In this document: piece by piece, positions 21,265 to 25,928 of the stretch | How positions within the stretch are numbered: position 1 is the first letter of the stretch | Layout of the letters: each line of letters starts with the position of its first letter | Assembly (NCBI GenBank): GCA_027047045.1 | Contig: JALTWL010000309.1 | Coordinates: forward strand, 1-33,133 | DNA: 33,133 nt | DNA from: Micavibrio sp. | Lineage (GTDB): Bacteria; Pseudomonadota; Alphaproteobacteria; Micavibrionales; CSBR16-224 | Reading direction: 5' to 3' | Program-made: the position numbers and the translations under genes | Notes under the pieces: model-generated | Seen by the model: the letters and a program-made list of their open reading frames with translations, nothing else | Databases searched by the model: none | What the model was told of the DNA's origin: nothing

Positions 21265-21969
21265 CTAAGAACCCCTTTTTTGTCTTTTTATCGCCATTTT
21301 ATCAAGTATATAGCCCTGTTCAGCTTTTGATATATTGCTAATTTGACCATCATTATTTATGATTTCCAATATTTCTTCTTTTGCTATTTGAATTGCCTCT
21401 ATGCTGCCTGATTTTAGCTCTATTTCTATTTCTGATATATTGTAAGACAAATCTTTTTCCTTTGCATGAGTGATGAGCCCCATATCAAAAGCTAGCTCTA
21501 CTATACCTATTTTTTTATTTTTCTTTAAAACACTAATACAAAAATATCTTCGCTTAACAGATGATGTAAAAACATGTTGTAATTTCTTAGTACTAATATC
21601 TTTTAAAGCCTGCACAATATTTTTATCTTTGACAATAGATAAATCTATTAGTGAAATATCTGGTTTCTTTTGTTTTTTAGGAAGTAAATTCTTAATTTCC
21701 ATTCTTGTCATAACAGACGAATCACCACACTGGTCAGATACGGTATATTTTAAAGTCTGCTCATAGCCTAATTTTTCTTTATATTGCACCCTAAGTGCCA
21801 TTTTACATTTTTCAATATCTCTATTTTTAGTATCAAAATATCTTCTTGGTCTGTGTTTTTTCTTTATTTTACCATCAATTGCTTTTTTGGAAAAAATTTT
21901 AAAAACACGCTCAACCCCAATTTTATTGATGCATATCTTAAGTTCTATTTCTTTTTCTTTATCAGACAT
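21265..21969 (-). CDS. CYTH domain protein (triphosphate-binding tunnel fold)
   Basis: The 234-residue product looks like a CYTH-domain protein, the family of inorganic triphosphatases, thiamine triphosphatases and class IV adenylate cyclases. The N-terminal signature ExExK is present as E7, E9 and K11 (KEIELKICI). Further charged strands follow, typical of the tunnel: RRYFDTKNRDI at about residues 42-52, ALRVQYKEK at about 58-66, YEQTLKY at about 69-75, KRRYFCI near 139 and EIEIELKSGS near 182. There is no CHAD domain. It ends a four-gene unit, 20 nt after the aminotransferase. The substrate cannot be told; inorganic triphosphatase is the likeliest guess. Confidence 0.8.
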   Translation of the reverse strand: MSDKEKEIELKICINKIGVERVFKIFSKKAIDGKIKKKHRPRRYFDTKNRDIEKCKMALRVQYKEKLGYEQTLKYTVSDQCGDSSVMTRMEIKNLLPKKQKKPDISLIDLSIVKDKNIVQALKDISTKKLQHVFTSSVKRRYFCISVLKKNKKIGIVELAFDMGLITHAKEKDLSYNISEIEIELKSGSIEAIQIAKEEILEIINNDGQISNISKAEQGYILDKMAIKRQKRGS

Positions 21970-21989: not shown

Positions 21990-24306
<2,317 letters not shown>

Positions 24307-24729
24307 TTATTTAGCTTTCTTTTTCTTGGCAATTTTCATAATTGCATTTACGTGACGTTTAGATGTTTTTGCTGGCGGGGTGAGCTCACTATCTGAAGTA
24401 AAGCCAAAATTTTGCATGCTGCCAGAACTACTCATATTTTGTAACATTGCCTGTCCAAAATTATCTATGTCATTATTTTTAGTATCTTGTTCTTGTACTT
24501 TTGAGAGGAGATTTGTTTTTTTTAGATTTTTAGCTTCTATTTCCTGCCCATATTCCTGTAGAGCATAACCAACCATACTTTTAAAATGTGGAATCGCAAG
24601 TTCCCGTAAAAGTAAACTATCATCTTTTAGCCAACTTAAAATCAATCTTTGCGCAGTGGCGTAATTGCCATTTGATATTAAAAGAGCGTCTTTAATTCTT
24701 TTTTTTGCGTAGTTATTGCTAATAGACAC
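24307..24729 (-). CDS. Uncharacterised 140-aa protein
   Basis: I do not recognise a characterised family. The protein is soluble, without signal peptide or membrane span. The N-terminal half (about residues 8-58) is predicted helical and contains RIKDALLISNGNYATAQRL and LILSWLKDDSLLLRELAIPH, which recall short alphaproteobacterial conserved hypotheticals with an IRDAL..GN..KAQ pattern (from memory, not searched). The second half is polar, with a methionine- and serine-rich linker (about 93-110) and a basic tail of KRHVNAIMKIAKKKKAK type. The start is GTG at 24729, with GGAG six bases upstream inside a strong hairpin. It heads the kinase-aminotransferase-CYTH unit, with its TAA directly followed by the kinase ATG. 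Confidence 0.72.
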   Translation of the reverse strand: MSISNNYAKKRIKDALLISNGNYATAQRLILSWLKDDSLLLRELAIPHFKSMVGYALQEYGQEIEAKNLKKTNLLSKVQEQDTKNNDIDNFGQAMLQNMSSSGSMQNFGFTSDSELTPPAKTSKRHVNAIMKIAKKKKAK

Positions 24730-24733
24730 TAAA

Positions 24734-24765
24734 ATCTCCTCAAATTAACGATTGCTTGAGGAGAT
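24734..24765 (-). promoter_or_regulatory. Perfect 10-bp hairpin burying the ribosome binding site of the 140-aa gene
   Basis: ATCTCCTCAA (minus strand, 24756-24765) pairs perfectly with TTGAGGAGAT (24734-24743) around a 12-nt loop. The 3' arm contains the GAGGAGA Shine-Dalgarno of the GTG start at 24729. The stem would hide the site until opened. Four T follow directly (TTTTAG), so a weak terminator for the upstream gpt-cytochrome c genes is the alternative reading; both may apply. Confidence 0.7.
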
Positions 24766-24803
24766 ATTAGCATGAAAAAAAACTATAATAAATGATAAAT
24801 TTG

Positions 24804-25436
24804 CTATTCTACTGGCAATTGCGCAGGACTATCACTTAAACTTCTTAGCCATGCGATAAGAGCAGCTCTATCTTCTAACTTTTTAACTCCAGCAAAACTC
24901 ATCTTAGTTCCCTTGATGTCTTCTCTTGGTTTGGTTAGAAATTTATTTAACTTATCGTAGCTCCATTTACCGCCTGCATTTTGCATTGCTTTTGAATATT
25001 TGAATCCTTCAACCGTGGCTATATCTCTGTTAACTATATTCCACAAATTGGGACCCATTTTATTTTTTCCACCTTTATCAAAGCTATGACATGCCGCACA
25101 AGATTTAGATATTTTCTTACCCTTTTTTACATCTGCGGTGGCTAACAGTTCTTTAAAACTTACAGCTTTTTCTTCTGCCACGACTTCAACTGTTGCTGTT
25201 GCCTCAGCAATTTTGTCTTTTACTTCTTTTTCTATCTCATTTTTAGATATATTTTCCACTTCACCATTAAAAGACTGAGCAACAGGAGGTGTATCTTCTG
25301 TTTCTACTTCTATTATATAGGCTCTTTCTTTTGGTATTTTTATAGGAACTGCAACTTTAGCAATAGCCCCAGAAATACCAGCAACCCCACAAGCAACTAT
25401 AAGAGCAAACAACATTTTAGCTAGAATTTTAAACAT
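24804..25436 (-). CDS. Membrane-anchored class I cytochrome c (CycM/c552-like)
   Basis: The 210-residue product has an uncleaved N-terminal anchor (about residues 4-26), a periplasmic linker of about 70 residues rich in Glu, Lys, Ala and Val, and one mitochondrial-type cytochrome c domain. The haem site is CAACH (C113, C116, H117), and the methionine ligand is M179 in GTKMSFAG. The segment GPNLWNIVNRDIATVEGFKYS matches class I cytochromes. In alphaproteobacteria such anchored cytochromes carry electrons from the bc1 complex to a terminal oxidase. It lies nine bases after gpt, with a good GGAG site. Confidence 0.9.
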   Translation of the reverse strand: MFKILAKMLFALIVACGVAGISGAIAKVAVPIKIPKERAYIIEVETEDTPPVAQSFNGEVENISKNEIEKEVKDKIAEATATVEVVAEEKAVSFKELLATADVKKGKKISKSCAACHSFDKGGKNKMGPNLWNIVNRDIATVEGFKYSKAMQNAGGKWSYDKLNKFLTKPREDIKGTKMSFAGVKKLEDRAALIAWLRSLSDSPAQLPVE

Positions 25437-25445
25437 TTTAATCTC

Positions 25446-25928
25446 CTAATTTACATTTTTTCTTTTACCTGCAATTGGCTGGGCAAATTGTAACTCTACA
25501 TCCCAAGGAAAATGTATCCAAGTATCTTGACTAACTTCCATTACAAATGTGTCAACAGTTGGCATACCTTGTGGTTTGACATACACAGTTGCAATATGCG
25601 CTGCTGGAAATAATTTTCTTGCCAAAATAGCTGTTTTTCCTGTATCTGCCAAATCATCAACTATAAGCCAACCTTCTCCATCACCAATATCACCAGTATT
25701 TTTTAAAACCTCTATATTACCTTGTTCTTTGTGGTCATAGCTAGCAACACATAGAGTTTCAATCATACGTATTTCAAGCTCACGCGCCATAATAGCCGCA
25801 GGCACAAGCCCTCCCCTAGTGATTGCAATAATTCCCTTCCACGCCCCTTCTTCTAGCAACCTCCATGCCAGAGCCTTTGAATGACGGTGAAATTCCTCCC
25901 AAGATATTGGTAAATCTTTATTTAACAT
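25446..25928 (-). CDS. gpt: Xanthine(-guanine) phosphoribosyltransferase
   Basis: This enzyme makes XMP and GMP from xanthine or guanine and PRPP in purine salvage. The 160-residue product is slightly longer than E. coli Gpt (152). It has ISWEEFHRHSKALAWRLLE at the N-terminus, the ITRGGLVPA loop at about residues 36-44, and the PRPP-binding motif WLIVDDLADTGKT at 87-99. The C-terminal segment with WIHFPWD binds the purine. It is the first gene of a two-gene unit with cytochrome c. A TATAAT-like -10 lies 37 bp upstream of its start. Confidence 0.93.
   Translation of the reverse strand: MLNKDLPISWEEFHRHSKALAWRLLEEGAWKGIIAITRGGLVPAAIMARELEIRMIETLCVASYDHKEQGNIEVLKNTGDIGDGEGWLIVDDLADTGKTAILARKLFPAAHIATVYVKPQGMPTVDTFVMEVSQDTWIHFPWDVELQFAQPIAGKRKNVN

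What the first reader, a model, noticed from the sequence alone, without database searches (positions are those of the whole stretch)
24734..24765. Ribosome binding site of an unknown gene locked in a perfect 10-bp hairpin
The Shine-Dalgarno of the GTG-initiated 140-aa gene lies wholly in the 3' arm of a perfect 10-bp inverted repeat with a 12-nt loop. This gene heads a unit with a kinase, aminotransferase and CYTH protein, so the hairpin could act as an RNA thermometer, a protein-binding operator or a read-through attenuator. The four T after the stem make a dual terminator/SD-hiding element possible.
Basis: partly seen in the sequence, partly recalled or inferred. Interest (0 to 1): 0.5.

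Follow-up and report, generated by a model that had tools for sequence, protein, structure and literature searches.

The report
Hairpin hiding a gene's ribosome-binding site
In one uncultured alphaproteobacterium, a small gene's ribosome-binding site sits inside an unusually stable RNA hairpin, which would block translation of messages running in from the neighbouring genes but not of messages starting at a possible promoter inside the hairpin; this is unproven and seen in one genome only.

Summary
The hairpin is real: perfect 10-bp stem, 12-nt loop (24734-24765, minus strand), Shine-Dalgarno (SD) wholly in the 3' arm; past one mismatch the stem goes on to enclose the GTG start. Freeing the SD costs 15.1 kcal/mol, the highest of 171 sampled starts of this genome (next 9.6). 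None of 9000 random own-intergenic upstreams reached it, though the best came within 0.2.

It is not conserved: 69 relatives cost 0.0-8.4, so there is no covariation to count. The junction is peculiar to this genome: the two gene units it joins are each conserved, but none of the 6 family relatives joins them. It is a poor terminator and would not melt as a thermometer.

Best reading (0.4): a read-through lock. Relatives carry a conserved extended -10 before this gene. The best match here (24774-24764; weak, chance about 0.07-0.11) overlaps the 5' arm. A start near 24757 would omit nearly all of that arm and drop the SD cost to about 1, while read-through messages stay locked, as in phage T4 gene e and I-TevI. 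Start site, read-through and function are unshown; chance remains possible.

The parts
24734..24765 (-). RBS-sequestering hairpin, perfect 10-bp stem, 12-nt loop
   Evidence: Sequence; fold -12.5 kcal/mol; single copy in the held genome
24756..24765 (-). 5' arm ATCTCCTCAA (anti-Shine-Dalgarno arm)
   Evidence: Sequence; messages that lack it have a freed SD in the truncation scan
24734..24743 (-). 3' arm holding the Shine-Dalgarno GAGGAG (24741-24736)
   Evidence: Sequence; SD opening cost 15.1 kcal/mol, rank 1 of 171
24726..24773 (-). Extended stem: seven further pairs beyond a U.U mismatch, enclosing the GTG; as an inverted repeat 15 of 18 positions match
   Evidence: Fold -19.5 kcal/mol, z -5.1; repeat comparison
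24764..24774 (-). Candidate extended -10 (CATGCTAATAT); predicted start near 24757, inside the 5' arm
   Evidence: Best match in the 74-nt gap to a motif from 68 relatives, 5.6 bits; weak, chance about 0.07-0.11; no recognisable -35 (by eye)
24729..24773 (-). 14-codon upstream ORF (MLISPQAIVNLRRF) across the hairpin; its TAG overlaps the GTG by one base; no Shine-Dalgarno of its own
   Evidence: Translation; use not tested
24307..24729 (-). 140-aa protein of unknown function, first gene of the unit
   Evidence: 133 of 142 genomes of the order match, own included; no Pfam or NCBIfam family above cut-off
23206..24306 (-). APH-family kinase, AmgK-like; its ATG abuts the TAA of the 140-aa gene
   Evidence: Pfam APH 3.1e-14; AmgK models match below their cut-offs
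21990..23231 (-). Class I/II aminotransferase, aspartate transaminase-like
   Evidence: Pfam above cut-off; best NCBIfam model below its cut-off
21265..21969 (-). CYTH-domain protein
   Evidence: Pfam CYTH 3e-15
24804..25436 (-). Cytochrome c gene, source of read-through in the proposed mechanism; ends 38 nt before the hairpin
   Evidence: Pfam Cytochrom_C 7.5e-12; no terminator-like site listed between it and the hairpin on this strand
25446..25928 (-). Xanthine phosphoribosyltransferase gene, paired with the cytochrome c gene
   Evidence: NCBIfam NF006613 above cut-off; pair kept in 6 of 6 family relatives

Best explanation
A read-through lock. Messages that run in from the xanthine phosphoribosyltransferase-cytochrome c unit carry both arms, fold the hairpin and hide the Shine-Dalgarno and GTG of the 140-aa gene; translation of that gene, and probably of the abutting kinase gene, is blocked on them. 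Messages that start at the unit's own promoter, whose candidate -10 overlaps the 5' arm, begin at about 24757, lack nearly all of the 5' arm and are translated. Shown by computation: the hairpin, the sequestration, its rarity, and the loss of the lock when the 5' end lies at or after about 24760. Inferred: the promoter and start site, the read-through, coupling to the kinase gene, and any benefit.
For: SD opening cost 15.1, rank 1 of 171; 0 of 9000 random own-intergenic upstreams reach it. Truncation scan: SD cost 11.6-15.1 for 5' ends at 24765 or further upstream, 2.3 at 24760, 0.9 at 24759, 0.8 at 24757. 68 relatives yield an extended -10 motif TRTGNCATNCT with an estimated share of 0.81, mostly 20-46 nt before the start; the best match here ends 34 nt before the GTG. 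With that start the read-through penalty is 13.5 kcal/mol against 2.9 (sd 2.4) in 40 shuffles. No terminator-like site is listed between the cytochrome c gene and the hairpin on this strand, and the hairpin scores poorly as one. Same anatomy as T4 gene e and I-TevI in two reviews (passages seen).
Against: The -10 match is weak (5.6 bits; expected 0.11 times in 64 positions; 141 of 2000 shuffles reach it) and I see no -35. The strict promoter scan lists no site there; on this strand it lists one at 24835-24806, which would start upstream of the hairpin and carry all of it, though such hits are no more frequent than in shuffles (24 against 25.4). One genome only: in 39 relatives with a clear -10 and an SD motif the read-through penalty equals shuffles (1.44 against 1.31, difference 0.13 +/- 0.28, 14 of 39 above their null). 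The same-genus relative scores only 0.2 bits for the motif. Even with a start at 24757 the model leaves the SD only 47% unpaired at 37 C, and freeing SD plus GTG still costs 4.8. No transcript data.
Confidence: 0.4

Rival explanations
1. Chance or neutral by-product: the 5' arm is a local inverted copy of the Shine-Dalgarno-start region (for instance by template switching at a rearrangement) or a random match, with little regulatory meaning.
For: No comparable hairpin in 69 relatives; the junction is peculiar to this genome; the two halves match at 15 of 18 positions, beyond the perfect stem; own-composition shuffles reach the cost in 3 of 6000, about one case per 2000 genes; one random own-intergenic upstream of 9000 came to 15.12 against 15.27.
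Against: 0 of 9000 reach it with real own-intergenic sequence; the next most locked start in the sample is 5.5 kcal/mol weaker; a lock on the head gene of a unit kept throughout the family should be costly unless bypassed (inference).
Confidence: 0.25
2. Weak intrinsic terminator or attenuator at the end of the cytochrome c unit that also covers the RBS.
For: The 13 perfect repeats with four or more G-C pairs in the sample, this one included, are all intergenic, and 8 of the 12 others score as terminators on at least one strand; it begins 38 nt after the cytochrome c stop.
Against: Only three T after the stem, then AGTG; score -15.7 on its strand and -47.4 on the other (formula recalled); 4 G-C pairs and a 12-nt loop. 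It is not listed by the terminator scan, but that scan's loop limit of 8 excludes it by rule.
Confidence: 0.14
3. Ribosome-opened lock: translation of the 14-codon upstream ORF, whose TAG overlaps the GTG, melts the hairpin and couples to the 140-aa gene, as reported for Salmonella mgtQ-mgtB.
For: The ORF runs through both arms and ends in TAGTG; an intergenic short ORF that releases an RBS from a stem-loop is known (abstract seen).
Against: Its ATG follows eight T and a C, with no Shine-Dalgarno. Conservation of the ORF was not tested.
Confidence: 0.13
4. Operator for a protein that binds DNA or RNA, for instance autoregulation by a product of the unit, or a target of an antisense RNA.
For: A palindrome over a candidate promoter and RBS is a usual place for an operator (general knowledge).
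Against: Single copy with up to 3 mismatches at this spacing; no comparable hairpin in relatives that keep the genes of the unit; no Rfam match at gathering score.
Confidence: 0.06
5. RNA thermometer.
For: The SD is paired in a hairpin.
Against: Predicted unpaired fraction of the SD is 0.0006 at 37 C and 0.017 at 70 C; a perfect stem lacks the mismatches that make thermometers meltable (recalled).
Confidence: 0.02

Closest known systems
Phage T4-type late-gene RBS hairpins (gene e, soc, 49, I-TevI; also segB, and mobE of phage Aeh1)
   Same: RBS in a stable helix on long transcripts; a nearby promoter placed so that its transcripts lack the 5' part of the helix and are translated (passages of PMC2988022, and PMC3014915).
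   Different: Bacterial chromosome; the promoter is only weakly supported and no start site is mapped; no infection-like timing; no homology claimed.
Tn10/IS10 fold-back inhibition of read-through transposase mRNA (recalled; one search found 0 papers, and the 10 of 43 listed were not read for it apart from passages of one)
   Same: Read-through mRNA folds over the RBS; the element's own transcript starts inside and does not.
   Different: I did not search this locus for transposon ends; the gene is an ordinary conserved chromosomal gene.
Salmonella mgtQ short ORF and the mgtB RBS stem-loop
   Same: Intergenic stem-loop hides the RBS of a downstream operon gene, with a short ORF in the intergenic region (abstract of PMC8092293).
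   Different: The short ORF here has no Shine-Dalgarno and its translation is untested.

Membership tests
T4-type promoter-in-stem RBS lock | Shine-Dalgarno and/or start codon sequestered in a stable helix on long transcripts | tested here: met
   Predicted folds only
T4-type promoter-in-stem RBS lock | Promoter at or in the 5' arm, so that its transcript lacks that arm | tested here: inconclusive
   Candidate extended -10 at 24774-24764, 5.6 bits, chance about 0.07-0.11; a start near 24757 would free the SD; start site not mapped
T4-type promoter-in-stem RBS lock | Long transcripts from upstream exist and are not translated | not testable with these tools
   A codirectional upstream unit and no terminator-like site listed in the gap on this strand allow it; no expression data
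Intrinsic terminator | G+C-rich stem followed by a U-rich tract (d-score above 0; formula recalled) | tested here: not met
   -15.7 and -47.4 on the two strands; 8 of 12 other repeats of the same genome exceed 0 on at least one strand
RNA thermometer | Hairpin opens within the growth temperature range | tested here: not met
   SD under 2% unpaired up to 70 C in the model
Conserved riboregulator | Pairing kept in relatives, with compensatory changes | tested here: not met
   No comparable hairpin in 69 relatives; relatives are distant and have other upstream sequence
Conserved riboregulator | Match to a known Rfam family at gathering score | tested here: not met
   5 matches up to E 5, all below gathering score
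Dispersed operator palindrome | Further copies at other promoters of the genome | tested here: not met
   Only this copy: up to 3 mismatches at spacing 12, exact arms at spacings 4-30
mgtQ-like leader ORF | The short ORF is translated and its translation opens the stem | not testable with these tools
   A 14-codon ORF is present, without a Shine-Dalgarno

The most novel reading that the evidence does not exclude
When the 140-aa-kinase-aminotransferase unit came to lie downstream of a foreign transcription unit, the genome gained a local inverted copy of the RBS that supplied both a lock against read-through translation and an internal promoter -10: a newly arisen, T4-style translational insulator in a bacterial chromosome, perhaps made in one step by template switching.
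Probability: 0.12. Interest if true: 0.6.

Novelty: new member of a known kind. Interest (0 to 1): 0.33.

Why it matters
If right, it is a chromosomal example of a device best known from phage T4: one message starts inside the hairpin and is read, the other runs through and is silent. It would show how a gene unit set next to a foreign transcription unit can be insulated at translation without a terminator. If wrong, it is a reminder that a striking hairpin over a Shine-Dalgarno in a single genome may be a by-product of rearrangement or chance.

Tried and rejected
Covariation: not possible. None of 69 relatives has a comparable hairpin; no covariance model was built.

Class-wide lock: I tested whether relatives' -10 regions generally pair with their Shine-Dalgarno. 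39 of 69 relatives passed the filters (motif score 7 or more, an SD motif, enough sequence); the mean read-through penalty was 1.44 against 1.31 for shuffles, 14 of 39 above their own null. Rejected as a general design.

Thermometer, terminator and dispersed operator: rejected as above. Rfam: 5 matches, all below gathering score. Promoter consensus in this AT-rich genome was not informative: TGNTANNNT 71 times in 167 sense upstreams against 52 reversed and 59 reverse-complemented; the motif-discovery part of that script failed on an N and was not repeated.

Limits of the counts. Gene calls are longest-ORF calls of my own, so starts are approximate; the 171 are only ORFs with an SD motif near a possible start. 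Start codons of relatives were picked by script, and where no SD motif was found fixed positions were used. Upstreams were read for 69 of the 132 other order genomes that matched (142 searched, own included). One search left out the own genome and one relative with a short upstream.

Full report
Observation. On the minus strand the sequence before the 140-aa gene reads ATGCTAATATCTCCTCAAGCAATCGTTAATTTGAGGAGATTTTAGTG. Arms 24765-24756 and 24743-24734 pair perfectly over 10 bp with a 12-nt loop, and GAGGAG lies in the 3' arm. The fold gives -12.5 kcal/mol for the 32 nt; for 60 nt it gives -19.5 (z -5.1), because seven more pairs beyond one U.U mismatch enclose the GTG. Three T, not four, follow the stem.

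Rarity. I sampled 473,370 bases of the 2.17-Mb genome, window included. Perfect repeats of 10 bp or more with loops of 3-20 nt are found 33 times, against 18-22 in three Markov sequences; the 13 with four or more G-C pairs are all intergenic. Among 171 starts with an SD motif, the cost of freeing the SD has mean 2.5 and sd 2.2; the target is first with 15.1, the next is 9.6. Random own-intergenic 46-mers put before the same SD reach the observed cost in 0 of 9000, but the best came to 15.12 against 15.27; shuffles of its own upstream reach it in 3 of 6000. The repeat is unique in the held genome, also with up to 3 mismatches. So it is most unlikely at a given gene, but one such case in a whole genome is not impossible by chance.

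Surroundings. The gene heads a tight unit: an AmgK-like APH kinase whose ATG abuts the TAA, an aspartate transaminase-like enzyme and a CYTH protein, followed in the window by nusG and ribosomal protein genes (named by eye from the translations). The 140-aa, kinase and aminotransferase genes stay together in 7 of 7 family genomes, own included; the CYTH gene follows in 5 of 7. The 140-aa family matches in 133 of 142 genomes of the order. Several family records are the same contigs, by length, as metagenome-assembled 'Alphaproteobacteria bacterium' records. Two order genomes hold contigs of 2,481,983 and 2,458,610 bases, sizes I recall as those of Micavibrio aeruginosavorus, so the order is probably Micavibrionales (recalled, not looked up).

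Junction. Upstream, xanthine phosphoribosyltransferase and cytochrome c form another conserved pair, kept in 6 of 6 family relatives, but on another contig or, in the one-contig genome, about 0.7 Mb away from the 140-aa gene. In the same-genus relative a sensor kinase gene stands before the 140-aa gene; its counterpart in this genome lies on another contig. The junction that holds the hairpin is therefore seen only in this genome.

Conservation. In 69 relatives the cost of freeing the SD before the orthologous gene is 0.0-8.4 kcal/mol, and the longest perfect stem that puts its 3' arm on the SD is 8 in one and 6 or less in the other 68. There is no pairing to test for covariation.

A conserved promoter. 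In 68 relatives' upstreams an expectation-maximisation search finds an extended -10, TRTGNCATNCT, with an estimated share of 0.81, mostly 20-46 nt before the start. In the window's 74-nt gap the best match is CATGCTAATAT (24774-24764), ending 34 nt before the GTG. It is weak: 5.6 bits, expected 0.11 times in 64 positions, reached by 141 of 2000 shuffles; I see no -35. The same-genus relative scores 0.2 bits. A generic promoter scan does not list it and lists instead a site at 24835-24806 whose message would carry the whole hairpin, but such hits are as frequent in shuffles. The candidate overlaps the outer end of the 5' arm; a start 7 nt on, near A24757, would leave the 5' arm almost wholly out of the message.

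Consequence. I folded messages with successive 5' ends. With ends at 24765 or further upstream, freeing the SD costs 11.6-15.1 kcal/mol; at 24760 it costs 2.3, at 24759 0.9, at 24757 0.8. Freeing SD and GTG together falls from about 16 to 4.8, and the model leaves the SD 47% unpaired at 37 C in the short message against 0.06% in the long one. Thus the same gene would be closed on read-through messages and far more open on messages from the candidate promoter. No terminator-like site is listed between the cytochrome c gene and the hairpin on this strand, and the hairpin scores -15.7 as a terminator while 8 of 12 comparable repeats exceed 0 on at least one strand (formula recalled). Read-through is therefore plausible but not shown. 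The lock would not act as a thermometer: the SD stays under 2% unpaired at 70 C.

Mechanism. I consider most likely (0.4) a read-through lock of the T4 gene e and I-TevI type, in which longer transcripts carry the inhibitory structure and transcripts from the nearby promoter lack its 5' part (passages of PMC2988022, and PMC3014915). Rivals: chance or a by-product of rearrangement (0.25), a weak terminator (0.14), opening by translation of a 14-codon ORF that crosses the hairpin and overlaps the GTG by one base, as reported for mgtQ (abstract of PMC8092293) (0.13), a local operator (0.06), a thermometer (0.02). Against the first: it is in one genome only, the promoter match is weak, and relatives as a class show no such design (39 tested).

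Origin. Beyond the perfect stem the two halves match at 15 of 18 positions. The reverse complement of the SD-start region thus gives both the 5' arm and the candidate -10. A local inverted duplication would explain both at once, and would also explain the hairpin without any function. This is inference.

Literature. Searches for 'fold-back inhibition' with transposase and read-through, and for Micavibrio with operon and hairpin, found 0 papers each. The Tn10 parallel is recalled only.

Noticed in passing
24307-24729 and orthologues: The 140-aa protein matches in 133 of 142 genomes of its order but no Pfam or NCBIfam family above cut-off: a conserved family of unknown function, next to an AmgK-like kinase in 7 of 7 family genomes.
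   Followed up: partly
upstream of the orthologues, loci L164-L233: A conserved extended -10 motif TRTGNCATNCT stands before the orthologues across the order; by eye some also show TTTGG about 17 nt before it, not counted.
   Followed up: partly
24758-24795 (+): The inverted repeat also gives the plus strand a Shine-Dalgarno and ATG (GAGGAGATATTAGCATG) before a 7-codon ORF (MKKNYNK), read by eye; probably without meaning.
   Followed up: no
L178 and L174, upstream of the orthologue: In two genomes of the order the predicted read-through penalty is 8.7 and 8.0 kcal/mol; by eye the -10 region CACTCTT can pair with the Shine-Dalgarno AAGGGAG: a possible weaker form of the same arrangement.
   Followed up: partly
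L072:162-194 and 715-741: Two 12-bp inverted repeats with the same palindromic core AGTCCGGACT about 520 bases apart on contig C49 of this genome; possibly an operator or a small repeat family.
   Followed up: no
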